A stretch of 64,000 bases of DNA, taken from Bacillota bacterium. Its GTDB lineage: Bacteria > Bacillota > Clostridia > Lachnospirales > CAG-274. The DNA lies in NCBI GenBank assembly GCA_017543265.1, contig JAFYGI010000060.1, positions 1 through 64,000 on the forward strand, in the 5' to 3' direction. Numbering within the stretch: the first letter of the stretch is position 1; every line of letters begins with the position of its first letter. Below the pieces are notes generated by a model. It was not told where the DNA came from. It saw nothing but the letters and a program-made list of their open reading frames with translations, and made no database searches. Positions 4,531-39,200 of this stretch are shown one piece after another. A program made the position numbers and the translations under genes.

Positions 4531-4560
4531 AAGCCCCAAAACGCTATGTTTTGGGGCTTT
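4531..4560. terminator. Bidirectional terminator between HD-GYP gene and sortase operon
   Basis: AAGCCCCAAAAC pairs perfectly with GTTTTGGGGCTT around GCTAT. There are A's on the left and T's on the right, so it can serve both convergent genes. Confidence 0.85.
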
Positions 4561-5747
4561 TATTGCGGCTGTGTCTGCTCGAGATCCTTTGGGTGCTCGC
4601 CTCTGTACCTGAAAAATACTATATCGGCCAGAAGTGCTGCACCGAATACGGCAAGCAATACCTTTGTGTTTTCGTCCATTATCGTCATGCTTCCGTGAAG
4701 ATACTGGGTCTTTGCAAATATATATGCGGAAAATGCCGCACATACTATTTCCGCGGCCGTGCCTGCGGCTATCTTTATCTCAAAGTGTCTCAGATCCCTT
4801 GCTACCTTGGGTGAGGTGTCCTTAAGCTGCCTTGACATACTTGCCGCATAGACAAACTGATAGTATTTCCTTGCGGTAAATACAAAGGGCATAAATGTCA
4901 AAAACGTAAACACAACGCACAAAAGGTCGAGCAAAGACCAGCTTTTGGCGGTGGTATAGTGTCCCTTTGCTATCCTTTTCGGTGCTGGGGGCTCTTCCTG
5001 CAGGATCGTGGCCTGTGTTATGGGTGTGAGCGAGGCAAAAACCACCGATCTGCCGTTTGTCAGGGAGTCCGTACAGGTCGAAAAGGCTATTATCTTGTCA
5101 AGGGACGTATCGTTTTTGAATATCATACTGTTTTTTGCGATGTATTCCAGCATTTCGCTGTGCCCCTGTGCGGAAGGTATATCCTTGAAATAGATAAATT
5201 CGTCGTAAGCATCGGTCCGCATTACAGCAAATATCTTAATGCCGTAATTATGCTCGGGGCTCATCAGTATTCCGTCCCTGTGTGCATTGAAAAAGGCTTC
5301 ATCCGTGTATTTTTCTATATCGCCGAACATTGCGCCGTTATCCATGTGATGACCGTAGATAAGGTTGTAGCTGTCCGAAAAGTCGGCGCTGTTTTGCGTC
5401 CGCAGATACAGCGAGCCCGTAAGCGAGCTTTTGCCGTAAATATCCTTGTTGATATATTCAAGGTCGTTGTCGCCGTGGAGCACGGGATAATCTATATTTG
5501 TGTCGTTTATGGTAAGCCAGGCGACCGTGTCGGGGTTAAGCGCCAAAATATCCGTAAAGCCAAGCTTTGTTTCTTTCAGCGAGGGCTTGTACTGCTGCAG
5601 GTCCACGGAGGAAAAGGCCATTTTCCCTTTGCAGAAATTATCATACAGTACATAACCGCTGAATAACAGCATGACCACAGCGATAAATGTGATGATAAGG
5701 CCGAGCAATTTGTCGCACACGTCGAAAAAACCGCGTATTATTTTCAT
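4560..5747 (-). CDS. Class B sortase with C-terminal membrane extension (pilus polymerase candidate)
   Basis: Membrane transpeptidase expected to cleave sorting signals and join pilin subunits. An N-terminal anchor spans residues ~12-33. The sortase fold covers ~60-245, with catalytic His133 in IYGHHMDNG, Cys225 in FSTCTD and Arg233 in NGRSVVFASL; this layout is class B. Two more hydrophobic spans near 270-295 and 355-385 form a C-terminal extension absent from the short iron-acquisition SrtB enzymes, making it ~395 residues. Its start overlaps the stop of the SipA-like gene (ATGA), so the two are translationally coupled. Gene order pilin, sipA-like, sortase matches the streptococcal FCT pilus logic, in which a class B sortase polymerises the FctA pilin. 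The role is inferred from context. Confidence 0.88.
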   Translation of the reverse strand: MKIIRGFFDVCDKLLGLIITFIAVVMLLFSGYVLYDNFCKGKMAFSSVDLQQYKPSLKETKLGFTDILALNPDTVAWLTINDTNIDYPVLHGDNDLEYINKDIYGKSSLTGSLYLRTQNSADFSDSYNLIYGHHMDNGAMFGDIEKYTDEAFFNAHRDGILMSPEHNYGIKIFAVMRTDAYDEFIYFKDIPSAQGHSEMLEYIAKNSMIFKNDTSLDKIIAFSTCTDSLTNGRSVVFASLTPITQATILQEEPPAPKRIAKGHYTTAKSWSLLDLLCVVFTFLTFMPFVFTARKYYQFVYAASMSRQLKDTSPKVARDLRHFEIKIAAGTAAEIVCAAFSAYIFAKTQYLHGSMTIMDENTKVLLAVFGAALLADIVFFRYRGEHPKDLEQTQPQ

Positions 5748-6253
5748 AGATTTGTTCGCCTCATTATAGTTATGACCGTGCCAAGGATCTCACTTTTTTT
5801 GACGGGGCCGTAATAACGGCTGTCCTCGCCGTTTCTCCTTTGGTCTACAAGCACAAAGCAGGTATCGGGCTCAAGCGTGATGGGGTAGTCCACAAAGCCC
5901 TCGAACCGCGGGGTCTCGTAAAAAATGTTGTTTTCGTACACGCTGTGTCCGTTTATGACAAGACGGTTATTGTCGGTGATGTCCACAGTGTCCCCACCGA
6001 CAGCCACAACGCGGCCCACATATACCGTGTTGTTCTTTTTAAGCACGGCAATATCCTGTGCCTTCATGTCCGTGTCAAGTCTGTAGTAGAGCAGCAGATC
6101 GCCCGAATCTATACGGGGATACATATCGTTGTTGGGCGCGTGCAAAAGCCCGAATACCCAACCGTACATAAGCCACAGCGCCGTTATAAGGACAAAGGCG
6201 TGTATAAGAAATTTCTGGGGCTGATCCATAGGCCCTTTTTCCTTTTTTTTCAT
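5744..6253 (-). CDS. SipA-like pseudo-signal peptidase, pilus assembly factor
   Basis: Signal peptidase I fold of ~169 residues with an N-terminal membrane span. Start chosen at 6253 (MKKKEK), with AGGAG 8 bases upstream; an ATG nine codons earlier lacks such a site. Family boxes are recognisable: box B reads NNDMYPRI where active enzymes have SMxP, box D reads YVGRVVAVGGDTV where active enzymes have KR, and box E reads EDSRYYGPV. The catalytic Ser is thus Asp43 and the Lys is Gly80. In Streptococcus pyogenes SipA the dyad is likewise replaced, as I recall by Asp48 and Gly85, the same 37-residue spacing. SipA is needed for pilus polymerisation and lacks peptidase activity. I infer a non-proteolytic pilin chaperone or sortase cofactor, cotranscribed with pilin and sortase. 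Confidence 0.85.
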   Translation of the reverse strand: MKKKEKGPMDQPQKFLIHAFVLITALWLMYGWVFGLLHAPNNDMYPRIDSGDLLLYYRLDTDMKAQDIAVLKKNNTVYVGRVVAVGGDTVDITDNNRLVINGHSVYENNIFYETPRFEGFVDYPITLEPDTCFVLVDQRRNGEDSRYYGPVKKSEILGTVITIMRRTNL

Positions 6254-6381: not shown

Positions 6382-7707
6382 TTATATTTTTCTTGTGTCC
6401 TTGTTTTTATCCTTTGTTTTGCCTGCAAGCATAAACAGCAGACCCGCAAAGGCTGCAAGGATGATAAACGGTATAAATCTCAGGATTATGCCCGTGGGAG
6501 AAACCGCATCCAGCTTGTTTGTAAACTTACAAAATCTGCGGCTTTCATCGGCTACGGTACCGGTCACGCTTGACGAGTTGTTTGCCGTTTCGTAATTACA
6601 TACATGAACGGGGGTAGCGGAAAGCGATACGGTGCCGCCCGATGCCACGCCCGTAAAGTCAAAGAATGTTTCATCCGGTTCGTTTTCGGTGGTGTTGTCC
6701 TTGATGTAATTCGCTTTTACCATATATGTTTCCAGCGTATTGTTATGCTCGGTGTAATTGAACGTTGCGTGAGGGTTAAGACCTCTTATTACCAATGCAT
6801 CGTTATGCTTTAACGAGACCTGCGTAAGACCCGTGTCGCCCGCTGCCACATACTGCCAGCGGCTGTCGTTGTCCGCAAGCCTGGGGCCTCTTTCGGAATT
6901 GTCGTCTATCGGATATACAGCATAATAATAGGGCTTGCCGTTGTTATTAAGCGATATGTCAAAGGTAAAGGAGTGGGTCTTGTCACCCATGGCACCCGTT
7001 ACGACCTTTTTAAGCATGGTAGCGTAGTTGCGGTAGGAATCGTATCCGTTTCCGTCTCCCTCGATATATCCGGAACTCTTGCCTGTTTCACTATAGCTTG
7101 CGGCATTTGAGTTGTGCAGGACATAGCCGCTTACCTCGTAGCCGCTGTCGTCCGACTTGGCGTTGACATATACATCAAGATATCTTGTTGTAAGATAATC
7201 GGCTCCGTTTGCGCCGTGTCTTGATATACCCGCGGTGTAAAGATCCGAGGTAGTGGTAGCATCCGTAAGCTTATAGCGGTATACGCCGGGTCTTGAAAAT
7301 TTGGTGGGATCGATGGTCACGGTTATGTATCTGACTGTCTCGCCGGGCGAGCGAACTTCGCTTTCCGAAGAACTAAATATAGGCTGACCCGTTACGCTTG
7401 CGCTGTTTGCGGGGCCTGCCGCAACCGCAATGGCACCCACCGTCGATCCGTCCGCAGGTGTTACGGGTTCAATGGTAAAGTTGTATTCTATATCGGGTGG
7501 ATAGAGGGTAAGGGATACACCCGCAGCGTAGATAAGCGTTACGCCCTTGGGGATATTGACCACATTGCCGCCGTCGGCCTTGCCCGTTTCGGACAGGGTG
7601 TTAGTCGGCGGGTCTGCAAATGCCGATAACGGGAATGCCGAAATAAGCATCACAACGGCAACCGCCGCCATAAGTATTTTTGCAAGTTTAGATAATGTCG
7701 TTTTCAT
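6382..7707 (-). CDS. FctA/Spy0128-like major pilin with VSPTG sorting signal
   Basis: Secreted pilus backbone candidate of 441 residues. A signal peptide spans 1-31, ending ...FPLSAFA. The first domain (~45-200) has the FctA-type pattern NFTIEPVTP, PGVYRYKLTD and TTRYLDVYVNAK, as in pilins with intramolecular Lys-Asn isopeptide bonds. The second domain begins KKVVTGAMGDKTHSFTFDI and ends with a Cys/Asn-rich stretch. The C-terminus is VSPTG (402-406), a hydrophobic span and a Lys/Arg tail. PTG-type signals are used by class B pilus sortases, and one lies downstream. An AGGAGG site precedes the ATG. First gene of the leftward pilus operon. The isopeptide bonds are inferred, not shown. Confidence 0.85.
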   Translation of the reverse strand: MKTTLSKLAKILMAAVAVVMLISAFPLSAFADPPTNTLSETGKADGGNVVNIPKGVTLIYAAGVSLTLYPPDIEYNFTIEPVTPADGSTVGAIAVAAGPANSASVTGQPIFSSSESEVRSPGETVRYITVTIDPTKFSRPGVYRYKLTDATTTSDLYTAGISRHGANGADYLTTRYLDVYVNAKSDDSGYEVSGYVLHNSNAASYSETGKSSGYIEGDGNGYDSYRNYATMLKKVVTGAMGDKTHSFTFDISLNNNGKPYYYAVYPIDDNSERGPRLADNDSRWQYVAAGDTGLTQVSLKHNDALVIRGLNPHATFNYTEHNNTLETYMVKANYIKDNTTENEPDETFFDFTGVASGGTVSLSATPVHVCNYETANNSSSVTGTVADESRRFCKFTNKLDAVSPTGIILRFIPFIILAAFAGLLFMLAGKTKDKNKDTRKI

Positions 7708-7967: not shown

Positions 7968-7996
7968 TTGAAAAAACATCCGTATTTTGATATAAT
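7968..7996 (+). promoter_or_regulatory. Adhesin gene promoter
   Basis: TTGAAA, 17 bases, then TATAAT, about 115 bases upstream of the adhesin start and divergent from the pilin promoter. Confidence 0.75.
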
Positions 7997-8060: not shown

Positions 8061-8092
8061 GGGGATAATGAACTATGACCGCCGTAACGCAA

Positions 8093-8101
8093 GGGGGGGG
8101 G
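8093..8101 (+). repeat. Poly-G tract (9 G) at adhesin ribosome binding site
   Basis: Nine consecutive G's lie eight bases before the ATG at 8110, and inside an upstream in-frame extension that starts at 8068. Such tracts slip during replication; a phase-variation role is inferred. Confidence 0.9.
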
Positions 8102-8109
8102 TGGATCGT

Positions 8110-11100
8110 ATGAAACTCAACTTAAAAAGGCGTATTGTAAGTGCAGCGGCAGCTGTGTCGATAATGGTATCGGCTGTGCTTTCGCCCGTGAATGTGTATT
8201 CGCAGGACGAGTGCGATCTGCCGCAGACCGCCGAGATCGTACAGGATGCGGAGTCTGCCGATGATACGCAGTTAATTGAAGAATACCCCGATACACCCGA
8301 GGATAACGATATCCCGGAAGACGGGGAGAGTGCGCCCGTTTTGCGTGAGACCGATATAGAGGCAGAGATAACGACGACCGCCGTTTGCAGCGAGTCGGAC
8401 GGCGATGAGGACAGCGCCCGCGCGGACGGCGTGAGTGACAGCGTAATTACAGGCGGGGGCAGTCTTACGGCCTTTGTTGAAAACGAATATAAAATAACAC
8501 TTGCCTATGACAGCGATGCGGGCATACCCGAGGGTGCGCAGCTTCGTGTTGCGGCCGTACAGCGGGACGACTATGTGTCCGCTGCCGCAGATGCACTTGA
8601 TCTGGCGGAGGACGACTATGTTTTATACACCAGATTTTTTGATATAACGATACTTATGGACGGCACGGAGATAGAGCCGCTTTCGCCCGTTACCGTAACG
8701 GCGGAGCTTCTCGATATGGACGGCGGGGCGGAGGCTCTGCAGGTGGTGCATATCGACGGGGACGGCGCTGTGCCCGTTGAAAGCAGCGTGACGGACGAGG
8801 CCGAGGTCGTGTTTGAGGCCGAGTCGTTTTCGGTATACGGCTTCAGCAGCGTTTTGCATACGGTTTATACGGAACAGTCCGATATTGCGGACATCACGCT
8901 TTACAGCACCGGCGACAGCGTGGACTTTGCGGAGGAATCGATTTTTGTTGAGCCTCCCGAGGAGGGCATAGAGCCGTCAAAGTCTTTTGTGCTTGCGAAC
9001 ACAGATGCGGCGGAGGACACAAGGCTTTGGGTCAAGGCCGAACAGGGCAGCGGAGAGCTTCCGAAGGGTCAAAGCTGTGCGCTTTACAGCGTGCTTGACG
9101 GTAATGCGGGCAATGTAATAATTGAAAATATCGCCGAAAGCGACGGGCTTGTTGCTGTGGACAGCGGCTCGGACGGCGTTGTGCTTATGATAGATACGGG
9201 TTATCGCCGCCTTAATTTCGAGCTGGAGCCAAAGACGGGCACAGCCGTTACTCTGGACGGACTTATGCCCCGTAATGCACAGGCAAAGGCGGTGGATGCC
9301 GCCGACAAATACGGCGAGTATACCATAGCGGCCTGCGATATCACCATTTTGGACGGCAAAAACGAGTATCAGCCCTGTGAGGAACATCCCGTATCGGTGA
9401 CCATAACCGATCCTGCCATAACCCCGAATGAGGGTCTTGGCCTGTGGCATATAAAGGACAACGGCGAAAGAGAGCAGATAACGGATTTTACGGCCGAAAA
9501 CGGCAAAATAAGCTTTACCGCCAAGGGATTCAGCGTATATGAGATAGTGCAGGGCCCCGAACCGTATGAGCCCGATACCCTTTTGCGTGCGGCCACCCTT
9601 GATGAGATCAAGCCCGAAAACGGCAAGGATAAGGGCTTTTATCTGTCCGTAGGCAAAGGGACCAATGGCGGTGCATGTTACTTCAGAAATGTTTTGAACA
9701 CCAAGGCAAGCAACGGTGCGGTCTTTTACATAACCGATAGTCTGGATATACAGGCAGGTGCCGTATGGTATTTTGAACAGGTATCGGCAGATGACAATAC
9801 CTACCGTGTTTACACCTATCCGGCGCTTACGCCCGAAACCAAGAATTATATTTTAAGAAAAACAGACGGTACCGGCAACGCGGTAGACCTGACGACAGAC
9901 CCTACCTTGGCTGTTGTATTTGAAATGCAGGGCTCCGGCGGCTTGTTCTATATGAAGGACAGCACAGGCGACAAGTATTTGCAGTATTCAAACAGCGGAG
10001 GGGGCATAAGGTTTTACGACGGCACGGGCGATGACAAAAACAGTAAGATAGCGCTGACCTATGCCTCGGTTATGAATGTGCCGGACGATTATTACGGCTT
10101 TGACGGCAAGACCTGCGCCCTGATACACGCAAGCACTTCAAACGGCATTACCACGGGCTACGGTCCGACGACAACGGCGGCAGCGGATGCGACCCGCCTG
10201 CGTGCCGAGGATGTGGTAGTAAAGATAAACGGCTACGACCATACGAGCGAATTGTATGTTACGCTGTCGGGCGGGGACCTGGCAATGTTTACTTTCCACA
10301 CGGTGGGCGGGGACAGGTACCTTTTGTCAACAACTATAGGTGAAGATACAAAATATCTTAAGATAGAGGAGTCGGCGCTTTCGTTTGTTGACGAGGACGA
10401 GGCCTCCGAAATAACGGTCGTTCCGGGCAAGGGCGATTACAGCGGCAGGATAAGGCTTGTTTACAAGGGCATAAATCTGGCCTATACAAACAAAACATTT
10501 TATGCAAGCGCCAACGGCGGCGCATGGCTCTGGCCTGCACTGCCGTCGAGCTATCAGGACGACGATTTTGTTATCTATTCCGCAAAGAAGGCAAGCGTAT
10601 CCAATAAAAACATTACCACGGGCAGCGAGATAATCGTCTATACCCGTATCTGGAACGATGCCGAGTCAAGATATGATTTTTATGCCGTAAATCATGACGG
10701 TACCCTTGTACCCTGCTATGAGCGCGGTAATTCCATAATGTGGATAGGCAGCAAAATAAATACGCTTTTGTGGGAATTTACGGAGTATACCTATGCCGAC
10801 GGCACTCCGAACCATTATTACGAGTTTTATAACCCGTATTCGGGTAAGTACCTTGCACCGCAGATGTCGTCGCAGGAGGGCGGACAGGTGCTTTCGGACA
10901 ATACGATAGGCGTAAATCTTCCGGGCAGAAAAAGCGACGGCTATTATACGCAGATAACGGCGTGGGACGACCCGTATTATGCGTATGCAAGCTTAAAGGC
11001 GGACGGCACGGAAAAATTGACATCATGCCACCGCTTTGACAACGACACGGCGACATTCTACTTTGCATCCATGGAGCCGATCGCATCGCAGGATCTTACG

Positions 11101-14100
11101 GAGATAGAGACTGTTGACAACGGCGAGTACGGTATTAAAATGAGAATGGTGGATTTTAACGGCGAATTGGTAAAAATTGGCAGTACAACATCCACAAAAA
11201 AACAGAACGACGTAATGGGCGAGTCCACATATACGAACGGCAAGGTCGGCAGATACGGCCTGCTTAAAACCGATATGACGGCGGGCTATCCCACGGCAAA
11301 GCTGACGGGGAAATCCCTTTCGGAGCTTTTTAACGAGTCGGAGCCGGTAAACCACCTGTTTATAGAAAGTACGCACAGAGCCAGCGGCTATTTTGAATAT
11401 GACAGCTGTCAGAATTTTGCTACCCTGATCGGAGGCAGCGGGCAGCCGGAATACGCAAGGGACGAGGACAATAACCTGCTGACCGATGAAGACGGAGAAA
11501 ATTATTACAACTTTAAGGTCTACAAGGAACTGGGTACGATAGATACCGGTGTGAAAGACAGTTACAAGCACGGACAGTTTATGCCGTATAATACCATATC
11601 TCCGGATGTTTTTTCCGAGAAAAATCCCGAAAACCTCCTCGATGCGGAGCAAAATCCTCTGCCGGAGACCGACCCGCGCAAATATGAGCCGCTGTGCAAG
11701 ATAGCTTCCCCCGACTATTACTTCGGTATGGAGCTTGCAGCGGGCTTTGTACAGACACCGAGCGGCAAGGATGCATGGGATCACGATATTATATTTGAGT
11801 TTACGGGCGACGACGATTTCTGGCTGTATGTTGACGGCGAGCTCGTTATCGACCTGGGCGGCATACATTCCGCGATCCCCGGCAGCGTAAACTTTAAAAC
11901 GGGAGAGGTAAACGTAAACAACTGTACAGGCAAAAGCTCGGAGATAAACAGGATATACAATACCATCTACACCCAGCATAATGAAAACGCAACACAGCAG
12001 CAGCTTACCGACTTCAGAAATATGCTTTATAAGCCGGGCGGCAAAAACGACCCGCAGCCCAATACGCTTACGCTTAAGGAAATATTTGCGGCCAACTTCA
12101 TTTCGCGCTACTTTGCGGAGCATCCCGACGCATCCGCGGACGAGGCTTATACACAGGCCTGCGCATATATCGGCGGATATTTTGAGGCCGATGCGAACGG
12201 AACATACGGCTGTGAGGATATTTTCAAGGATTACTCGACGCACGAAATGAAAATATTCTATATGGAGCGCGGCGCGGGTGCATCAAACCTGCATATGCGT
12301 TTTAACCTCAGTGACGTTAAGCCCGGACAGGTCGTGCTTTCAAAGGAACTTGAGGGCTCCAGCGATATAGATTTCAGCCTTGTGCGTTATCCTTATCAGA
12401 TATGGTATAAGCCCGAAAATTCCACATCGCAGGAAAATGACGGCTATATCCTGCTGGGCAATGTTCCCGCGAGCGGCGGCGATCAGGGCGAGATATATGT
12501 TACCGACCCTACGTCGAATGCACCTGTTGATTTTCGGTCGTCATATACCGTGCGCGATGTGACAAACGGCGATATAACATACGAAAATGTATATTTCCTT
12601 AATCCGGGCAAGAAAATGGCGATAACCTTCCCGAGTGAGCTGATAGGCTACTATATCGTGGAATGCGGTGTTAACAAGGATGTTTATTCGAGCGTTTACG
12701 GCAATAATGTCGAGCTTGCGCCCACGGATACCGCAAATGTCTATTATAAGGATTATGCGGTAAGCAAGATGTCCGTTAAGGAAAGACCGAGCGTCAATAT
12801 CAAAAACGTGGTCGATTCGTCAGCGCTGCGTACTCTTTCCATTAAAAAGAATTTGTACAGCGAGCTTGTTGACGAAAACGATGTAATATACAGCGGTGCA
12901 AGAGACCCCGTCAAGGACGCAAGAGCAGATGCGTGCCTGCTTAGCAGGGACGACGATGATACCGAGTTCAGCTTCCGTCTGTATCTTGGCGATACAGAAA
13001 GCAGCATAGATTCTTTGCCTTACGCAAATATGCACAAATACAGGGTAAAGGACGAGAACGGCAATTACTGTAAATGGGTGAGAGGTACGGGCTTTGTATC
13101 AACTGGCAAAAATGATCTTTCACAGTTTACCGATGAGGAAGAATTGTCCGTGACCTTCGAGACCTCCATGAACGGTTCTATCTCGAAGATACCTGCGGGC
13201 TTTACGGTGGAGGTGCCGGGCATTCTGGTCGGCACAAAATTCAGGGTCGAGGAAAGGGAAAACGAGCTTCCAAAGGGCTACAGACTGATGCAGTACGAGC
13301 GTATCGACGGCACCTATCTGCTGACCGAGGGCGATACACCCAATGCGGGTGTGATACGCGCCAACTCCTCGCCGAAAATGACGATAAAAAACAGGCGCGG
13401 CTGGGGTCTTACGGCACAAAAATTCTGGTCGGACGACGGATATGTCGGCTGGCATTATCCGGTATATATTGCCGTATATATCAAAAACGGCAGTACGGAA
13501 GAATTGCTTCCCGGCACGGTAAGGGAGATAACAAAGGATTCGTTATCGGCCTACTATTACTTTGACGAGCTGGAAAGCGGCCATACGTTCGCGGACTATG
13601 TCGTGCGCGAGGTCACGCTTGATGACCCGCACTATGACGGCAGCGGCGCTTTGGTGTATAACGGCACACCCGTAAAGGTTGACAGCGGTGCCTTTGTAAA
13701 TGTGGATGTACAGCAGGTAAACCTTTCGGATACCAATGTATATAATTACGAATATGCCGTGACCTACGAGCAGGGTACGGCTTCGGGCGCACGGGGCGCA
13801 AAGGCGATAGTCAATGTCCGCACCGACAAAGTATACAACACACGAAGCGGCGGCATAATGATAGACCTGGGCGCATACAAGGCGGTAAATGCGGCGACAA
13901 ACATGGTCGCACAGCCGCTGGCGGGCGGCAAATTCAAGCTCACGCTTTACCGCACGACCGACCCCGAAAAGACTGTTTATACACAGCAGGCAAGCTATGA
14001 CTTTGTTACGGGAAGCGACGGTATCGTGACTATCCTCTACAACTTCATGCGCAAGACCGATGCGATGGATGCGTATTATTTGCTGGAGGAGATACAGTCT

Positions 14101-15117
14101 CCCGCAGGCTATGTCGGCATTTCACATCCCGTGAAGTTTGATGTGGAAAAGGTGAACGGCGTTGATGTTGTTACCCTGTACGATGATGAAAACGGTGACT
14201 GGAAGGCTATCAATGCAAGGCCGGACGATGATGACGTGCTTATAGCCAATTTGAATATCTTTAACAAGCCGTTTAACTTCCGTGCCATCAAGTTTGAGGC
14301 AGGAAACTCCGCAAATACGCTCGGCAGTGTAGTTTTTGCCCTGTACAGACAGGTAAAGGGCGGCAACGGTGCAGGGGTGAAGGATTACAGGCCCATAAGC
14401 GGATACGAGCATCTCGAGACCGATGCCGAGGGCGTTATCGACAAGATAAATCAGGAGCTTGAACTGGGTACTTATTACCTGACGGAGCTTTCTCCGCTGA
14501 CGGGCTTTGAAAATCTTCTCGGCGATATCATATTTACCGTTACGGAGCTCGGCGGCGTAACTCTTGTATCGGCACCTGCAGGGGTGGAGCTGAACGAGGA
14601 CATGGACGAATCGGGTATGAAAACTCTGGATCTCAGTATCCCGAACAGAAGAAACACCGTGGATGCATACATAACCGTACATAAAACCGTAGCGGGCAAT
14701 ATGGGCGATAAGAACAAGGAGTTTACGTTCACGTTTACCGTTGACGGCGCGGCCGCAGGTGCTTTGTTCGTCTGGACAAAAAACGGCACGGCGCAGACGT
14801 CGATCCATTCGGGCGAAACATTTACATTAAAGCACGGCGATACGGCTGTCTTTACCGTAACAAACGGCAGGACCGTCACAATAACCGAGACCGCCGAGGG
14901 CTATACGACAACCTTCAAAAAGGGCAGCGATGCGGAGACAGACGGCAGCAGTATCAGCTTTACCGTTGCGGGCGATACGACAGTTGAGGTCACAAACACG
15001 CTCAACATGGCAGTTCCAACGGATGTTGCGCATCATACTGCCGCATTTGCCATCTTGTTTATGTTTGCGGTATTAAGCATTATCATTAAAATAAAAGAAA
15101 ACGGTATCGGCAGATAA
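8110..15117 (+). CDS. Giant pilus-associated adhesin: fibro-slime domain, CnaB/SpaA domains, AVPTD anchor
   Basis: Secreted surface protein of ~2335 residues. Start 8110 (MKLNLKRR) gives a clean signal peptide; an in-frame ATG at 8068 would add 14 residues with a poor signal. The N-terminal part has two similar modules ending in a ...F(E/T)A(E/K)xFSVY motif. The middle (~500-1080) has aromatic-rich modules I cannot assign. A fibro-slime/PA14-like domain lies at ~1086-1407 (DDDFWLYVDGELVIDLGG, YFGMELAAGF, MRFNLSDVKPG). Then come a CnaB domain (~1762, WGLTAQKFWSDDG), SpaA domains (~1937, ~2056) and an FctA-type terminal domain (~2186, HKTVAGNMGDKNKEFTF). The end is AVPTD (~2301), a membrane span and a short basic tail, a variant class B-type sorting signal. 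Its position opposite the pilin-sortase operon suggests a tip adhesin comparable to Cpa. Confidence 0.85.
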   Translation: MKLNLKRRIVSAAAAVSIMVSAVLSPVNVYSQDECDLPQTAEIVQDAESADDTQLIEEYPDTPEDNDIPEDGESAPVLRETDIEAEITTTAVCSESDGDEDSARADGVSDSVITGGGSLTAFVENEYKITLAYDSDAGIPEGAQLRVAAVQRDDYVSAAADALDLAEDDYVLYTRFFDITILMDGTEIEPLSPVTVTAELLDMDGGAEALQVVHIDGDGAVPVESSVTDEAEVVFEAESFSVYGFSSVLHTVYTEQSDIADITLYSTGDSVDFAEESIFVEPPEEGIEPSKSFVLANTDAAEDTRLWVKAEQGSGELPKGQSCALYSVLDGNAGNVIIENIAESDGLVAVDSGSDGVVLMIDTGYRRLNFELEPKTGTAVTLDGLMPRNAQAKAVDAADKYGEYTIAACDITILDGKNEYQPCEEHPVSVTITDPAITPNEGLGLWHIKDNGEREQITDFTAENGKISFTAKGFSVYEIVQGPEPYEPDTLLRAATLDEIKPENGKDKGFYLSVGKGTNGGACYFRNVLNTKASNGAVFYITDSLDIQAGAVWYFEQVSADDNTYRVYTYPALTPETKNYILRKTDGTGNAVDLTTDPTLAVVFEMQGSGGLFYMKDSTGDKYLQYSNSGGGIRFYDGTGDDKNSKIALTYASVMNVPDDYYGFDGKTCALIHASTSNGITTGYGPTTTAAADATRLRAEDVVVKINGYDHTSELYVTLSGGDLAMFTFHTVGGDRYLLSTTIGEDTKYLKIEESALSFVDEDEASEITVVPGKGDYSGRIRLVYKGINLAYTNKTFYASANGGAWLWPALPSSYQDDDFVIYSAKKASVSNKNITTGSEIIVYTRIWNDAESRYDFYAVNHDGTLVPCYERGNSIMWIGSKINTLLWEFTEYTYADGTPNHYYEFYNPYSGKYLAPQMSSQEGGQVLSDNTIGVNLPGRKSDGYYTQITAWDDPYYAYASLKADGTEKLTSCHRFDNDTATFYFASMEPIASQDLTEIETVDNGEYGIKMRMVDFNGELVKIGSTTSTKKQNDVMGESTYTNGKVGRYGLLKTDMTAGYPTAKLTGKSLSELFNESEPVNHLFIESTHRASGYFEYDSCQNFATLIGGSGQPEYARDEDNNLLTDEDGENYYNFKVYKELGTIDTGVKDSYKHGQFMPYNTISPDVFSEKNPENLLDAEQNPLPETDPRKYEPLCKIASPDYYFGMELAAGFVQTPSGKDAWDHDIIFEFTGDDDFWLYVDGELVIDLGGIHSAIPGSVNFKTGEVNVNNCTGKSSEINRIYNTIYTQHNENATQQQLTDFRNMLYKPGGKNDPQPNTLTLKEIFAANFISRYFAEHPDASADEAYTQACAYIGGYFEADANGTYGCEDIFKDYSTHEMKIFYMERGAGASNLHMRFNLSDVKPGQVVLSKELEGSSDIDFSLVRYPYQIWYKPENSTSQENDGYILLGNVPASGGDQGEIYVTDPTSNAPVDFRSSYTVRDVTNGDITYENVYFLNPGKKMAITFPSELIGYYIVECGVNKDVYSSVYGNNVELAPTDTANVYYKDYAVSKMSVKERPSVNIKNVVDSSALRTLSIKKNLYSELVDENDVIYSGARDPVKDARADACLLSRDDDDTEFSFRLYLGDTESSIDSLPYANMHKYRVKDENGNYCKWVRGTGFVSTGKNDLSQFTDEEELSVTFETSMNGSISKIPAGFTVEVPGILVGTKFRVEERENELPKGYRLMQYERIDGTYLLTEGDTPNAGVIRANSSPKMTIKNRRGWGLTAQKFWSDDGYVGWHYPVYIAVYIKNGSTEELLPGTVREITKDSLSAYYYFDELESGHTFADYVVREVTLDDPHYDGSGALVYNGTPVKVDSGAFVNVDVQQVNLSDTNVYNYEYAVTYEQGTASGARGAKAIVNVRTDKVYNTRSGGIMIDLGAYKAVNAATNMVAQPLAGGKFKLTLYRTTDPEKTVYTQQASYDFVTGSDGIVTILYNFMRKTDAMDAYYLLEEIQSPAGYVGISHPVKFDVEKVNGVDVVTLYDDENGDWKAINARPDDDDVLIANLNIFNKPFNFRAIKFEAGNSANTLGSVVFALYRQVKGGNGAGVKDYRPISGYEHLETDAEGVIDKINQELELGTYYLTELSPLTGFENLLGDIIFTVTELGGVTLVSAPAGVELNEDMDESGMKTLDLSIPNRRNTVDAYITVHKTVAGNMGDKNKEFTFTFTVDGAAAGALFVWTKNGTAQTSIHSGETFTLKHGDTAVFTVTNGRTVTITETAEGYTTTFKKGSDAETDGSSISFTVAGDTTVEVTNTLNMAVPTDVAHHTAAFAILFMFAVLSIIIKIKENGIGR

Positions 15118-15340: not shown

Positions 15341-15390
15341 AATATTGTAAGATTTTTGAAAAACTTTTGCAAAATAGGGAGGAATTTTTT

Positions 15391-17781
15391 ATGAAGATCA
15401 AGGCATCGGTCAGACGACTGGTTTCCGCAATTCTTGCAAGTGCTATGCTGATACCCAACATGGGCATTAATGTAAGCGCTGCAAGCACATGTACCGTAAA
15501 CGCAGACAAGACCTATCAGACGATAGACGGCTTCGGCGGCATCAACCTTCCCGAGTGGATCTCACAGGGCGATATGACAGCCGCACAGGTACAAAAGGCA
15601 TTTGGTAACGGCAACGATGAGTTGGGACTTACCATCCTGCGTATTTATGTAAGTGACAACAGCAATGATTGGTATCGTGCAGTACCTACAGCAAAGCGTG
15701 CACAGGCACTCGGCGCAAAGGTATTCGCTACACCGTGGAACCCTCCGGCAAGCATGAGAACAAACGGCCAGGGCAATATCCAGACAGGTAAATATCAGCT
15801 CAGAAAAGACAAGTGGGCAGATTATGCAAAGCACCTCAACAATTATGTAAAATATATGGAAGGACAGGGCATCAACCTTTACTCTGTTTCAATACAGAAC
15901 GAGCCCGACTACGCAGCAGAGTGGACATACTGGAGCGCAAGCGACCTTGCAAGCTTCGCAGCACAGTACGGCAAGACTGTTACCAACGGAACAAAAGCAA
16001 AGCTTATGTCTCCCGAGAGCTTCCAGTACAGAAAAGACATCTACAATGCAATTTTAAATAACTCTACAGCAAAGAACAATATCGGTGTTTGGGGCACACA
16101 CTTCTACGGCACACCCAGATCGTGGATGGACTTCCCCGCACTTGAAAACTCCGGCAAGCCTATCTGGATGACCGAGGTTTATGTTCCCAACAGTGACAGC
16201 AATTCGGCTAACAGATGGCCCGAGGCTCTTCAGGTTTCCGAGAACATCCACAACGGTCTTGTTGTAGGTAACCTCAGCGCTTATGTATGGTGGTACATCC
16301 GCCGCGGCTACAGCCCCATGACAGAAGACGGCAAGCTCTCCAAGAGAGGCTACTGCATGGCTCAGTATTCAAAGTTCGTTCGTCCCGGCGATGTTCGTGT
16401 TGACGTAACAGAGCAGCCTGCAAGCAACGTTTATGTTTCGGCATATAAGAACAACAAAAATCAGGTTACTATCGTTGCGGTAAACAACAGCGACAGCGGC
16501 TATACACAGGCATTCTCGCTTGGCAACAAGAAGATCAGCGATGTTGACAGATGGCGTACATCTTCAAACGAAAATCTTGCAAAGACAGATAACCTTTCCT
16601 ACAGCGGCAGCGGCTTCAACGCACAGCTTCCCGCACGCAGCGTTTCCACATTCGTTGTAACACTCGGCGGTTCAAGCTCAAGCAGCAGCAACAATAATAA
16701 CAACAATAATAACAACAACTCAGGCTCTTCATCCAGCAGCAGCGGTACACAGCCCAACGATTACGGCTGGTACTTCGACAGCACATTTGAGAGCGGTACA
16801 GACAGCTGGTCGGGCAGAGGCGCAGCAAGCGTTGCATCAAGCTCAAGCCAGAAGTATGTTGGCAGCAAATCTCTTTATGTATCGGGCAGAACAGCTACAT
16901 GGAACGGTGCATCAAAGTCTCTTGACACAGCAACCTATGTACCCGGCAAGGCGTACAGCTTCAGCACAAATGTTAAGTATACAAGCGGCAACAATACAGA
17001 GCCTTTCTACCTGAAGCTTCAGTATGATGCAAACGGCTCAACACATTACGCTTCCATCGCAGAGGCAACAGTTTCAAAGGGCAGCTGGACACAGCTTGCA
17101 AACAAGAACTTTACAATACCTTCGGGTGCAAGCAATATGCAGCTTTATGTAGAAACAGGCAGCACAAAGTGTGACTTCTACATGGACGAAGCTATCGTTG
17201 CAAAGGCAGGCACAACTATCAGCGGTGCAGGCAGCGGCTCAAGTTCTTCAAGTTCAAGCAGCAGCAACAATAACAACAATAACAGCAACACAAATACAGG
17301 CAACACAAACACAGGCAGCACAACAAGCGGCGAGTGGAAGTCCAAGAGCTGGAACTTCTCCGACTCACAGTTCAACGGCCTGCGTACAGTAACAAGCAAC
17401 GTTACTATCGACGGTATCACGCTTCTTGCAAACAGCAGCAAGCCCGTATCCGTTCCTTCCGCACCTCAGACATTAGACGGCACAACATATAAGTATTGCC
17501 TTGCTCTGGGCGGCGGCGGAAACATGACATACCGTGCTGTAAGAGTACCCGTAAGCGGCTCTACAGTATTAAAGATCACTGCTAAATCAACAGGCAGCGA
17601 TACAAGAACACTTCTTGTTGTAAACGACAGCGGCCAGCAGGTTGGCTCTATCGACGTAAACGGTACACTTGCAACAGGTCAGGTTACGATCAACGGCAAC
17701 GGCAACCTTTACATCTACTCCAAGAAAAACGGTATCAACATCTACAAGATGCAGATAGATACAACAGGTTCTATCCAGTAA
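15391..17781 (+). CDS. GH30 (subfamily 8-type) glucuronoxylanase with CBM22-like domain
   Basis: Secreted xylan-degrading enzyme of 796 residues. Start 15391 is preceded by GGGAGG at 8 bases; a TTG at 15367 is less likely. After the signal peptide (ending NVSA) the GH30 catalytic domain has acid/base Glu171 in IQNEPDY and nucleophile Glu262 in WMTEVYV. The loop YIRRGYSP ... SKRGYCMAQYSKFVRPG resembles subfamily 8 enzymes, in which an Arg binds the 4-O-methylglucuronate branch. An Asn/Ser linker leads to a CBM22-like module (~457-608), a second Ser/Asn/Thr linker, and a C-terminal β-sandwich-like module (~649-796) I cannot name. There is no dockerin or anchor, so it is probably free. Codon use (ACA, GCT, AAG, AAC) is more biased than in neighbours, which suggests high expression. 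Confidence 0.9.
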   Translation: MKIKASVRRLVSAILASAMLIPNMGINVSAASTCTVNADKTYQTIDGFGGINLPEWISQGDMTAAQVQKAFGNGNDELGLTILRIYVSDNSNDWYRAVPTAKRAQALGAKVFATPWNPPASMRTNGQGNIQTGKYQLRKDKWADYAKHLNNYVKYMEGQGINLYSVSIQNEPDYAAEWTYWSASDLASFAAQYGKTVTNGTKAKLMSPESFQYRKDIYNAILNNSTAKNNIGVWGTHFYGTPRSWMDFPALENSGKPIWMTEVYVPNSDSNSANRWPEALQVSENIHNGLVVGNLSAYVWWYIRRGYSPMTEDGKLSKRGYCMAQYSKFVRPGDVRVDVTEQPASNVYVSAYKNNKNQVTIVAVNNSDSGYTQAFSLGNKKISDVDRWRTSSNENLAKTDNLSYSGSGFNAQLPARSVSTFVVTLGGSSSSSSNNNNNNNNNNSGSSSSSSGTQPNDYGWYFDSTFESGTDSWSGRGAASVASSSSQKYVGSKSLYVSGRTATWNGASKSLDTATYVPGKAYSFSTNVKYTSGNNTEPFYLKLQYDANGSTHYASIAEATVSKGSWTQLANKNFTIPSGASNMQLYVETGSTKCDFYMDEAIVAKAGTTISGAGSGSSSSSSSSSNNNNNNSNTNTGNTNTGSTTSGEWKSKSWNFSDSQFNGLRTVTSNVTIDGITLLANSSKPVSVPSAPQTLDGTTYKYCLALGGGGNMTYRAVRVPVSGSTVLKITAKSTGSDTRTLLVVNDSGQQVGSIDVNGTLATGQVTINGNGNLYIYSKKNGINIYKMQIDTTGSIQ

Positions 17782-33201: not shown

Positions 33202-36200
33202 ATGAAAGACCTGAAATTAAGGAGAATAGCGGCATTTGTTATGGCGTTGGTAATGCTTATGCCGTTTGTCTGCGTACCCGTAAGTGCCGAGACACTGCCC
33301 ACCTTTACGGTGGAAAGCACGAGTGTCACGGACGGCTATGTAAATTTGACCGTTGATATGCACGATTACCCCAGTAATGTTATGTGGATCAGGGTGGAGA
33401 GATGCGACGGCAGCGGTGCAATATTTAATTATTACCCGTCGCCGTGGTTTGATGAAAACGGGAAATTTGTCGATTACTATGCAATGACCTCACCCGTTAC
33501 GCTAAGGGTACCCTTGCCGGACTACGGCATATACCGTATAAATCCGGAGGGTTATAAGCAAAGCAACGGGCAAAGTTGGCAATGCGCTGCAATTCAGATA
33601 TCATATTTATCCTCGTCGGTATCGACGGCAACATCGGCAGGCATACGTCAGCTTGAACCGAATGTCAATAATACCTATTATCAAGTTGTCGGGGATGCGC
33701 CTACGGATGACGGAGTTTATATATTGAACAAAAACGGCGATTACAAGTATGCCGTTTACTGTAATGCGCCTTACCATGAGGCACAGCAGGCCGTATATAT
33801 ATCATCGGGCGGCAGTGTTCTCAAAACCGAAGCACTTACATGGAAAGCCTCCGAAAAGATCTGGGGCGGTGCGACCTATGCGGCGGCGGATTTCCCCGAT
33901 GCGGCAAAGATAGAGTTCCAAGCCGTTCGCGACCCGTCAAAAAAGATAAGTATAGATATAAGCAGGGTAACGATAGGCAGCGTGGGCTCGGTAAGCTTTA
34001 CAACAAATGCCTATGATTACTCCTATCAATGCCTTGCATCGTACATATCAAGAGCGTATTCCGGCGTTGTACAGCTTAACGAGCTTGCCACTGTCGTAAG
34101 CAAAAGCGAAGAGAGCTATAGCGCTTATGTACGGGGAAACAGCGGGGTATTCACAACCTCCTGCGGAAATTTCACCGAAGTCGGTTCGGAGGTAGTGGAC
34201 ATGACCGCGGGCGGCTGGAGAAATGCCGCAGGCACGGGTGAGGACGATATATGGACGACCCCTGCGCTGTATCATTACGCCCCGTCCGGAACAACGGTAA
34301 ATATCAGCATAGATGCGGCAGGCGCAAGCAAGATCGTTGCCGCACTTATATACAAAAGCAAGGACGGAAAGGAAGTTACCGTAGAGCATGAGTACAGCGG
34401 CTCGGCGGCTATTACCGTGCCGAGTGATGCAATGCAGCTTTTGTATGTTGAAGCGCGTGTATATAACGAGCGCGGCGAGGTTTCCGCGACCCAAAAAACA
34501 AAGCTTGAAAACTACTATTGCAGTAACTTTGTGGAATTTACCAATGTTCCCGACAGCGTATGCAATTTCACATCGTACAAGAATATGGACGGTTATTTCC
34601 GCGGCTTTGAAAAGCGTACCTCGCAGGGCGGCTTTGTGCTTACGGTAACGGACAGCGCGGGCAAGACATACCGTACCTACCTTGCAAACACAAAAAGATA
34701 TAAGTTTGATCCCAATTGGAATGTGAAAGGCAGCACAAGGAAAACCACATCGGGCTGGGATATTTATCCGTATTTTTCATACGGTACATCTATGCTTGGA
34801 AGTAATGTCCCGTCATACGAAATGGGCGGTACCATGCCAAATCTTTCTGTCGGCAAATGCACCTACGAGCTTACCTCGGACGGCAGACACGTCACATCGG
34901 GTACATTTACCGTAACGGGCGAGTTTGGTCAGAAAGTGGCTCTTAACGACATACCCGAACAGTATCAGAGCTTTCAGGTAAATGTTTCAAGTGCATCGGC
35001 AAACGGCGGCAAGGAAATACCCGTCGAGGTCGTAATGGATATAACCACTCCCGACGGTCAGACCAATAGGATAAGCAGCCCCGCAAGCGACAGCAAGCCG
35101 GCATTTATCCCGTTTTTGCCCGTTGGCAGCAAAATAAAGGCAGCGGTAAGCTACGATGCGGATGCTTATCCGTTTATAAAGGGCGTTTCGCCCGCAAACG
35201 GCGAATATACGCTGGTTTACGATAATGACCACCAACAGAGTCTTGATTTTGCCTTTGAAGCTATTGCAAAGCGCAGTATAACGGGCAGGACGGTCACGGG
35301 TACGGGTGCGGACAAAAAAACCGTGCCCTATGCAAATATCGTGGTAAGCCAGCCCATAACACGAAATGACGGCTCGTCCTACACACATAAAACGGTGGTA
35401 ACAAGTGACGAAAACGGCGATTTTACCATTCCCGATGCCTATGCGGGCTATGCGGGTACCGTGGAGATAAGGGCAAACGGCTTTAATGTAGTGGAAAAAA
35501 GCATTGATGCGGGCACCGCAGCGGCTGCGCTCGGCGAAACGGCGCTGGATTATTTCGGCACCTACTGCATAATTCCTTCACTTAAAAGCGAACCCGTAAA
35601 ATTGCTCGGCACGGACGGCAAGAGCGAAAAGAACTTTGACGGCAAGGAGATTGGAAACGAGCTTGGCGGCGAACTGCTTGATGCCGATACCGCACTTTTG
35701 CAGGTGGAAAGCATAGAAATAGGCGGCACGAAGTATTACCGCAATACGGACTGGTTTGAAAGCGTGGAGGGCGGACAAAGCATAATCAACTTTAAAAACG
35801 TATCCATACTTTCATCCGCGGCGGCAAATAAAAAGAAAGTGACCGTGCATTACAAAAAGCCCGCGGACGGTATATTTGAGATAAACGGCGTTAAAATGAC
35901 ATTAAGAAGCTTTGATGTAACGTCGGATTTTGACTCAAACAACACCATAGAGGCTGCGGCGATAGCCTACAGACCCGAGGGAGAGGTCAAGGTGACGGCT
36001 GTGGACGCGGACAGCGAAAACAAGGTGGGCTATGCGGTATTGTCGGACGGCATTGTTTCGTATACCGACGATAACGGCGAAGCACAGCAGGATATCAATG
36101 TTTTGAGCTGGGCAGGCGGCAAGGGCGAATTATCCGTTCACTATGACAAGGCCGCTTACAGCTCGGGCAAAAGCATCAAGCTGTATACCTTTAACGTGGG

Positions 36201-39200
36201 TGACGAGGATGCAAGGGTAATGACACAGATGCTGAAAAATGGCAGACCAAAGCTGGCATTATCCTCCGGTGCGATAAAGGCAACAGATGTGAAGCTTGCC
36301 GAAAACAGCATAATTTCCGCAGGCGACCTTAGCCCGCAGGGAACATACTCCGATATAGCTATGGGACCCTACAGCTTTGATTATATGCTTTCACCCTACA
36401 GCGAGGACGTAAATCTGGTCGAGGTGCGCGGTGTCCTTTCAAAAAGAGATACATCGTGCAGGGAGACCGTTTCCTCCGTAAGTATTGACAGCGGTGCGGC
36501 AATAGTTGTAAACGGTACGCAGTCCTCAGACGACGGCGTGTGGAACAATAAACAGTTTGAGTCGGGACAGTACAAAAATATCGTAAGTGCGCCCGTATAT
36601 GCACTTGTTCCGTATAAATCGGGCACGTCAGAGGTCGATTTTACAATAAAGGTAAATTATCAGAACAACGATACAAAGGCTAAAAGCTCCGACGTTTACA
36701 GGATAAGCGACGAGGTGCTCAACTTTGATATAACCGTTGCGGAAAATGTGAGCATGACCGATGAAATGGCAAAATCGGGCTGGGATGAGAGCAGACCGTT
36801 TGAGCCGTGGAAGCTTGGCATAAACATTGCGGCATATAAGAGCAGCGACCAGCGGGAAAATGTTATCACCGTATGGGACAACGGTACGGCAATAGGCACG
36901 CTGAACGCAAACGAGCTTGACGGCGCGGCCGAGAGAAAATTTGCCCTGACGGATATGTATACACCCCAGACACACACCATATACGCAACAAGGGAGCAAA
37001 AGCAGGGCAGCGGATATGTCACCGTATCCACACCTAAGAGATATACTTTTGTTTCGGCAAGCAAAAAGGATGTTTTTGCGGGCGATTATGTATGGTATCA
37101 TAACGGCAGTGTACATAGGGGCAGGATATCCATCAACCCCAACGCAAGAAGCATAATCGTATTCTGGGTGTATGGTGCGCTGTCAACGGATGTTGACTCG
37201 GTCGGCCTTAAAATAGACGGCTACAGGAGCAGGGCGGCGGTGCATCTTATCGATGATGCGGCAAACAATAAAAGCTGCTGGAGCGTGGCAGACGACGGGC
37301 TTGACCTTAAACCGTATTTAAATAGCAACAATACGCTTGACGATAATAAGGTCATAGAGCTGGCAAATACGCACGGTATAATGACAGGCAAAAGCACAGA
37401 CCTGGAGGCATGGATATCATGCACGCTGCCGGGCGTATCGACGACCGACAGAGAAACGCTCAGGGAAAAGGCATTCAGAAGCTATTACGAGTTAAGGGGA
37501 CTTAATGTACCCGATAACGACACAAAAATAGAAATGATAGAGGAGCTGACGGACGAGGAACTGGCGGAGTATGTCAGCGGCGAAAGAAAGGATCTTCCCA
37601 AGGAAATATCCGAGCTTAGCTACACGCTATCTACAAGTGCGGACGGCAAGGTGTTTACCTATACGGCGGCACCTACGGCATCTATCCCGCAGACGAGCCT
37701 TACCATTGATCTGAGTGACGACAGGGAGTATTCGCTTTACGAGCTTTTCCATACTTTGGAGCTGGAGCGTGCGGGACAGACCGATGACGAGGGCTATGAG
37801 ATACATTGGACAATGACCGATTCGGCTCAGGGCTACACGCTTGAAAGAGTGGCGACAAAGCATGAGACATTGACCGTAAACGGTAGGACACAGTATCATA
37901 CCGTGATGAAAAAGACGGTTTATCTTCCCTCCGAGGTCAAGGATGCGCTGTACAGCGCAGCGGGCATAGGAAGTGTGTCGGCATACGCAGCAGCGGAGGA
38001 TGCGCCTGTTATGGCCTTTGCTTCGGGCAAGACCACAAAGGCAAAGACGGATGCGCAAAAGAAGGATCCCCTGCTTAAACGCGGCTACAATGTAGTCAAT
38101 GAGGTATACTCCTATGTGGATCTTCACAGCACTATCCAACAGATAAAGTGTATCAACGAATTCCGCAAGGCGGGCGTAACAGACCCGAAGATATTGAAGC
38201 TTGCGGAAAATGCGGGCTATATCCCCGAATCCATAGGCACAGCGGCAAGTGTGCTTTCGGTTGCGGATTATGCCTACACGGTAAGCCAAGGCCCGTCCGG
38301 AAAAGCGGGCGACGAGCTTTGGAATATGCTTTCACAGGTAAAGGATCTTAGTGTAAGACAAAGCCTTTCACACGATATTCTGGATTATGAGAACCTGCGT
38401 GCGGAAAGCTACGAGCTTGACTGCTATGTTAAGGGTGCGACCACGGCAGGCGGTATTGTCAACAGCCCGCCCGTAAAGATAGGTCTTTTCCTCGGCTCAA
38501 GGCTTTACGATAGTATAAGGGGCTGGTCAAACGAGTACCAGAGCGATACCTACAACACCATAAGAAAATCCATTGAGGATCAGGTGAGAGCAGAGAACTA
38601 CAAGCAGCAGTATAAAGCAGCAAGAGCGGAGATAGAAGCGCGTATCAGAAAGACCTTCGGCAACAGCATGAGCCAGAAAGCACTTCAGGAAGAAATAAGC
38701 AAATACTGGGTGCTTACAAAGGTCAACGGCAGGCTGAAATATGTTTTCCATACCAAGCTGCCAAAGAAAAATATGTACATCGACCCATCGGGTTATGTAT
38801 TTGAGGCTGTTGAGGACAACAGAGTCGGCGGCATAACCGCGACCATTTATCAGGCGGACGACAAGGGCGAGTTTAATTTGCCGTGGGAAGACCCATTTGA
38901 GGAGGGTGCCCAGGAAAATCCGCAGATAACGGCCTCGGGCGAGGGCGACCTCGGCGGACGCTATGGCTGGATGGTTCCGAGCGGAGACTGGAAGGTCAAA
39001 TTTACCGATAAAAACAAAAAGTACAGGGATGCGGAGACTGTTATCATTCAGGTACCGCCCGAACATACAAATGTCAATATCGGTCTTATGTCGGACGAAA
39101 CACCTACAGTCAGGATGGAGACAAAGAGCGGGAAAATAGTCCTTACCTTTAACAAGTATATGCGTCTTGATACCCTTGTAAGAGCGGGTGCATCGCAGAC

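What the first reader, a model, noticed from the sequence alone, without database searches (positions are those of the whole stretch)
5744..6253. Catalytically dead SipA-type signal peptidase in a clostridial pilus locus
The signal peptidase fold is intact, but the catalytic Ser is Asp43 and the Lys is Gly80, 37 residues apart. This is the same substitution and spacing as in streptococcal SipA (Asp/Gly), a pilus assembly factor without protease activity. Finding it with a class B sortase and an FctA-like pilin in a gut Clostridium suggests an FCT-like pilus machine outside streptococci, either ancient or transferred.
Basis: partly seen in the sequence, partly recalled or inferred. Interest (0 to 1): 0.8.

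Follow-up and report, generated by a model that had tools for sequence, protein, structure and literature searches.

The report
SipA-like dead peptidase, clostridial pilus operon
An uncultured member of the Clostridia carries a signal peptidase that has lost its catalytic residues and that sits beside a pilin and a pilus-type sortase, matching the pilus-building gene set of Streptococcus pyogenes; comparison with other genomes shows this is a widespread clostridial pilus module and not a streptococcal speciality.

Summary
Confirmed. Window 5744-6253 (-) encodes a 169-aa signal-peptidase-fold protein with Asp43/Gly80 at the Ser/Lys positions. Its best solved-structure match by sequence and by predicted fold is S. 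pyogenes SipA (4n31; E 2e-22; Z 19.8). Its neighbours match the other FCT parts: the pilin model matches Spy0128/FctA best and the sortase matches Spy0129 best. A second locus in the same genome has the streptococcal order sipA-fctA-srtB-fctB, with an FctB match.

All 28 SipA rows compared (S. pyogenes SipA included) have lost the catalytic Lys, and all 27 genomic regions read carry a class B sortase, against 0 of 21 regions around intact Ser/Lys signal peptidases. Asp/Gly itself is not the signature: the Ser site drifts (D, T, A, S, E, G, H). The gene is under strong purifying selection (dN/dS about 0.06).

Most likely it is a non-catalytic assembly factor, as SipA is. Its molecular action is unknown even in streptococci. 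Class B sortase plus signal peptidase pili outside streptococci have a precedent (C. perfringens VR-10B). Novelty: a new member of a known kind, with a tighter evolutionary rule. The host is an uncultured clostridial MAG, not the genus Clostridium. Direction of transfer is unresolved.

The parts
5744..6253 (-). sipA-like gene: N-terminal membrane helix (aa 11-33) and signal-peptidase fold with Asp43/Gly80 in place of Ser/Lys; 169 aa
4560..5747 (-). class B sortase, 395 aa, with a C-terminal extension (about aa 265-380) that reads as two further membrane segments; start codon overlaps the sipA stop (ATGA)
   Evidence: TIGR03064 183 bits, over the cut-off; best solved match 3psq, the pilus sortase Spy0129; His and Cys motifs YGHH and FSTC read
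6382..7707 (-). major pilin candidate, 441 aa: signal peptide, two immunoglobulin-like domains, sorting signal VSPTG, membrane helix, basic tail
   Evidence: DUF7601; predicted model matches Spy0128/FctA structures best; Lys54, Lys234, Glu320, Asn397 invariant in 9 homologues
8068..15117 (+). divergent giant surface protein (2349 aa), candidate tip adhesin: fibro-slime/PA14, SpaA and DUF7601 domains, C-terminal sorting-like signal AVPTD plus membrane helix; the start may be at an internal ATG near 8110
   Evidence: an alignable protein follows the sipA-pilin-srtB-fctB genes on the same strand in L108
7708..8067 (.). divergent intergenic region with promoter-like sites facing each way (7968-7996 +, 11 of 12; 7860-7832 -, 10 of 12)
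   Evidence: consensus matches only

Best explanation
The gene encodes a SipA-type pseudo-peptidase that helps a class B sortase polymerise an FctA-like pilin. The pilin, SipA and sortase would be made from one minus-strand operon, with SipA and sortase translationally coupled. A canonical Ser/Lys signal peptidase elsewhere in the genome would remove signal peptides. SipA, anchored by one membrane helix, would use the retained substrate cleft or another face of the fold to hold the pilin (its signal or sorting segment) or the sortase-pilin intermediate, so that the sortase joins the Thr of VSPTG to a lysine of the next pilin. The giant divergent protein would be the tip adhesin. Shown: fold (predicted), dyad loss, homology, gene context, selection. 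Inferred: absence of proteolysis, operon transcription, requirement for polymerisation, and the binding step, which is unknown even in S. pyogenes.
For: Best solved match SipA 4n31 by sequence (E 2.2e-22) and by fold (TM 0.84-0.88 to the target, Z 19.8 against 14.3 for the best active signal peptidase). Tree: 28 SipA rows on one side of a branch, including S. pyogenes SipA (98/83; 86/72 with the dyad columns removed). Context: class B sortase in 27 of 27 SipA-like regions, 0 of 21 Ser/Lys signal peptidase regions, Fisher p 4e-14. Sortase to Spy0129, pilin to Spy0128, second-locus minor pilin to FctB 3klq. Purifying selection. In S. pyogenes, SipA is essential for polymerisation, and mutating its Asp has no effect (PMC4049620). 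A canonical Ser/Lys LepB is present in the same genome (L003).
Against: The window locus lacks a recognisable FctB-like base pilin and has the order pilin-sipA-srtB, not sipA-pilin-srtB-fctB. The AlphaFold model of the pilin is only moderate (mean pLDDT 67, C-terminal part poor). One relative with an intact Ser/Lys pair (L088) lies in a SipA pilus locus, so a peptidase role for some family members is not excluded. In S. pyogenes no binding of SipA to pilin or sortase could be detected (PMC7900414).
Confidence: 0.82

Rival explanations
1. It is still a pilus-specific peptidase that uses other residues (for example Asp43 with a nearby base), cleaving the pilin precursor.
For: The fold and box E are intact; an intact Ser/Lys relative (L088) sits in a SipA pilus locus.
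Against: The residue at the Ser site changes at least 12 times within the clade and the Lys is never kept, which conserved chemistry would hardly tolerate. S. pyogenes SipA shows no cleavage, and its Asp to Ala mutant still works (PMC4049620).
Confidence: 0.06
2. The locus anchors single surface proteins to the wall and does not build a pilus; SipA helps secretion or anchoring.
For: Many class B sortases anchor single proteins; the window locus has no FctB-like base pilin; the sortase has an unusual C-terminal membrane extension.
Against: The sortase is closer to Spy0129 (147 bits) than to solved S. aureus and B. anthracis SrtB (78-88 bits). The pilin is a two-domain FctA-like protein with invariant Lys/Asn/Glu positions expected of internal isopeptide bonds. 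The own genome has a third class B sortase without sipA, a better candidate for that job.
Confidence: 0.1
3. A decaying signal peptidase copy that happens to sit in a surface-protein cluster.
For: Loss of both catalytic residues; G034 carries a broken copy of the cluster (L060).
Against: dN/dS about 0.06 between orthologues, box E invariant, the same association in 27 of 27 regions.
Confidence: 0.02

Closest known systems
SipA/LepA of the S. [quoted passage not shown]
   Same: Fold, Asp/Gly at the dyad positions 37 residues apart, membrane-anchored small protein, next to an FctA-type pilin and a class B sortase
   Different: About 33-37% identical; the gene lies between pilin and sortase instead of before the pilin; no FctB or class C sortase seen in the cluster; host is an uncultured member of the Clostridia
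C. [quoted passage not shown]
   Same: Clostridial pilus with a class B sortase and a signal peptidase gene; described by its authors as syntenic with streptococcal pilus loci; pilus visualised (PMC8088525)
   Different: The passages I read do not say whether its signal peptidase keeps the dyad, and I could not fetch that sequence; different adhesin
Own second locus G000:C3 (L013)
   Same: sipA-like (Thr/Gly), FctA-like pilin with LPTG, class B sortase, FctB-like minor pilin, in the S. pyogenes order
   Different: Its SipA is only 32% identical to the window's; no giant adhesin seen before the contig ends
Type I signal peptidase (LepB/SipS)
   Same: Fold and box E
   Different: Ser and Lys both lost; signal peptidases with the dyad were not found near class B sortases (0 of 21 regions read)

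Membership tests
SipA/LepA pilus assembly factor | Signal peptidase I fold closest to SipA | tested here: met
   E 2.2e-22; Z 19.8; next 14.3
SipA/LepA pilus assembly factor | Catalytic Ser and Lys absent at the dyad positions | tested here: met
   Asp43/Gly80 in the alignment with 33 Ser/Lys enzymes
SipA/LepA pilus assembly factor | Groups with S. pyogenes SipA apart from Ser/Lys signal peptidases | tested here: met
   98/83; weaker, 86/72, without the dyad columns
SipA/LepA pilus assembly factor | Encoded with FctA-type pilin and class B sortase | tested here: met
SipA/LepA pilus assembly factor | No peptidase activity and required for pilin polymerisation | not testable with these tools
   needs a bench assay; known for S. 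pyogenes only (PMC4049620)
FCT-type pilus with class B sortase | Major pilin of the Spy0128/FctA two-domain fold with sorting signal | tested here: met
   fold match to 3b2m/3gle, E about 1e-9, all top 16 hits S. pyogenes major pilins; VSPTG tail; model confidence moderate
FCT-type pilus with class B sortase | Class B pilus sortase | tested here: met
   TIGR03064 over cut-off; best solved match Spy0129
FCT-type pilus with class B sortase | FctB-like base pilin in the cluster | tested here: not met
   none among the ORFs flanking the window cluster; present in the second locus. The window locus is therefore called FCT-like, not filed as an FCT region
FCT-type pilus with class B sortase | Polymerised pilus on the cell | not testable with these tools
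   needs immunoblot or electron microscopy
Active type I signal peptidase | Ser-Lys dyad | tested here: not met

The most novel reading that the evidence does not exclude
Lys-less SipA pseudo-peptidases are an ancient, Clostridia-wide, near-obligate partner of pilus-type class B sortases, in which the former active site drifts freely, and the streptococcal FCT pili are one offshoot of this clostridial module.
Probability: 0.4. Interest if true: 0.55.

Novelty: new member of a known kind. Interest (0 to 1): 0.42.

Why it matters
Reviews of S. [quoted passage not shown] The clostridial set turns that into a testable rule (27 of 27 Lys-less SipA regions with a class B sortase; 0 of 21 regions around intact enzymes) and supplies the diversity needed to find which SipA surface co-varies with pilin or sortase. 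It also suggests that the exact Asp/Gly pair carries no function of its own, in agreement with the S. pyogenes mutants, and that uncultured Clostridia carry the machinery, sometimes in several copies per genome.

Tried and rejected
I could not fetch the C. perfringens VR-10B signal peptidase or further streptococcal SipA sequences, so their dyads and the direction of transfer were not tested. Plasmid hits (Paenibacillus, Finegoldia and others) are annotated lepB or leader peptidase; the two neighbourhoods opened list no sortase near the gene, and I did not pursue them. An apparent Asp/Lys signal peptidase in G010 (L020) was an alignment slip; it is Ser/Lys. No near match to the cluster in phage records. 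GC and third-position GC of the cluster do not stand out from the window, so composition gives no sign of recent transfer. In one search one outgroup row was mislabelled as pneumococcal; 4me8 is E. faecalis, and it was renamed.

Full report
What is there. Window 5744-6253 on the minus strand encodes a 169-residue protein that passes the Pfam Peptidase_S26 and NCBIfam signal peptidase I models. The serine of box B is Asp43 and the lysine of box D is Gly80; box E is intact. These are the positions of Asp48 and Gly85 in S. pyogenes SipA, also 37 residues apart (PMC4049620). The start at 6253 has a GGAGAG upstream, and the stop overlaps the next ATG as ATGA.

Comparison with solved proteins. By sequence the best PDB match is SipA 4n31 (E 2.2e-22); the best match that is not SipA, a signal peptidase, is at 1.6e-4. 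A model from 20 relatives (mean pLDDT 83.5) matches 4n31 first (TM to target 0.84 and 0.88), with VIA Z 19.8 over 131 residues against 14.3 for the best active enzyme. The model has one N-terminal helix at residues 11-33, consistent with a membrane anchor.

Neighbours. The next gene downstream is a class B sortase over the curated cut-off, whose best solved match is Spy0129 (3psq), the S. pyogenes pilus sortase (E 1e-41). Upstream is a 441-residue secreted protein with a VSPTG sorting signal. Its sequence resemblance to S. pyogenes pilins is weak, but the predicted model's top 16 matches are all S. pyogenes major pilins (E down to 1e-9). In an alignment of nine homologues Lys54, Lys234, Glu320 and Asn397 are invariant, and the position of Asp223 is Asp or Asn in the rows I checked by eye. 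From what is known of Spy0128, these are plausible internal isopeptide residues; this is inference. A divergent 2349-residue surface protein with fibro-slime/PA14, SpaA and DUF7601 domains is a tip adhesin candidate; an alignable protein follows the pilus genes on the same strand in L108.

The same genome holds a second, more canonical locus. At G000:C3 (L013) lie sipA-like (Thr/Gly), an LPTG pilin with DUF7601, a class B sortase and a minor pilin whose best solved match is S. pyogenes FctB (3klq, E 7e-7) and which carries PF12892. The order sipA-fctA-srt-fctB is, to my knowledge, that of the S. pyogenes FCT-2 operon. The genome also has a canonical Ser/Lys LepB (L003) and a third class B sortase without sipA.

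How widespread. Searches of whole genomes with this protein found relatives that fall into two sets. In the SipA set, 26 rows plus the window and S. pyogenes SipA, none has the lysine; the lysine site is G, R, L, C or A, and the serine site is D, T, A, S, E, G or H. In the other set, 33 rows, all have Ser and Lys. The SipA set lies on one side of a branch with 98/83 support, falling to 86/72 when the dyad columns are left out. Members occur in at least 13 family-level groups; at the thresholds used, 13 of 391 genomes drawn from the class and 5 of 48 from the window's family carry one, excluding Ser/Lys hits. The distribution is therefore wide but patchy.

Association. I read the surroundings of 27 SipA-like loci and 21 Ser/Lys signal peptidase loci of similar length (mean 16.9 and 17.1 kb). 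A class B sortase was found in 27 of 27 and 0 of 21 (Fisher p 4e-14). The loci were found through SipA and not through the sortase. Several are near relatives, so the p-value overstates the independent evidence; the contrast does not depend on it. The most common order is sipA-pilin-srtB, often followed by an FctB-like gene; the window's group has pilin-sipA-srtB.

Asp/Gly is not the signature. The serine site needs at least 12 changes on the tree and the lysine site 6, and holding all Asp/Gly proteins in one clade is rejected at p 0.034, which is marginal. Identity of the dyad residues between this protein and S. pyogenes SipA may thus be coincidence. This agrees with the S. pyogenes work: Asp to Ala or Ser changes had no effect, and the residues are not conserved in other species (PMC4049620). 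One close relative with intact Ser/Lys (L088) sits in a SipA pilus locus, and that paper mentions S. suis and S. agalactiae homologues with an intact dyad, so the rule is not absolute.

Selection. Between the window gene and its 85-86% identical orthologues dN is about 0.08 and dS about 1.2 to 1.5. The gene is maintained as a protein.

Mechanism. I take it to be a non-catalytic assembly factor for class B sortase-driven polymerisation, as shown genetically for S. pyogenes SipA. What SipA binds is unknown even there: pull-downs with pilin, sortase and peptides were negative (PMC7900414). Binding of a pilin segment in the old substrate cleft is the most economical guess, but a V to R change meant to block the cleft had no effect in S. 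pyogenes (PMC4049620), so a scaffold role through another face is about as likely.

Prior knowledge. The C. perfringens VR-10B pilus is a demonstrated clostridial pilus with a class B sortase and a signal peptidase gene, described as syntenic with streptococcal loci (PMC8088525). The idea of an FCT-like machine outside streptococci is thus not new. The papers I could search did not report loss of the dyad in clostridial homologues or the strict association, but the library lacks most subscription journals.

Verdict. Observation confirmed, interpretation supported with corrections. A new member of a known kind, with a useful general rule behind it.

Noticed in passing
L069 1-1716 (G251:C34, minus strand): One continuous frame joins a class B sortase to an FctA/FctB-like (PF12892) pilin domain with an NPQTS-like sorting signal: a natural sortase-minor pilin fusion, at a contig end.
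   Followed up: partly
L065 9954-12182 and L067 10090-12426: The pilus sortases of related genomes (order-level kin, f9) carry MBG domains between the catalytic domain and a C-terminal membrane part like that of the window sortase.
   Followed up: partly
window 4560-4950: The window sortase has a C-terminal extension of about 130 residues with two hydrophobic segments; weak FILTED-domain match (0.0028). The PDB matches cover only the catalytic part.
   Followed up: no
L060 6298-8997 (G034:C43): A second copy of the cluster in a same-genus genome looks degraded or misassembled: the pilin frame is cut to 163 aa next to an adhesin fragment and the sortase is split into two frames, while sipA is intact.
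   Followed up: partly
L109 12443-13024 (G780:C45): A signal peptidase with intact Ser/Lys lies about 3 kb from a Lys-less SipA in a pilus locus and branches next to the SipA clade.
   Followed up: partly
window 33202-39810: A 2202-residue ORF with no Pfam match.
   Followed up: no
window 49304-56197: A 2297-residue surface protein with eight SpaA-type domains.
   Followed up: no
window 15367-17781: A glycoside hydrolase family 30-like secreted protein with a carbohydrate-binding domain beside the pilus locus.
   Followed up: no
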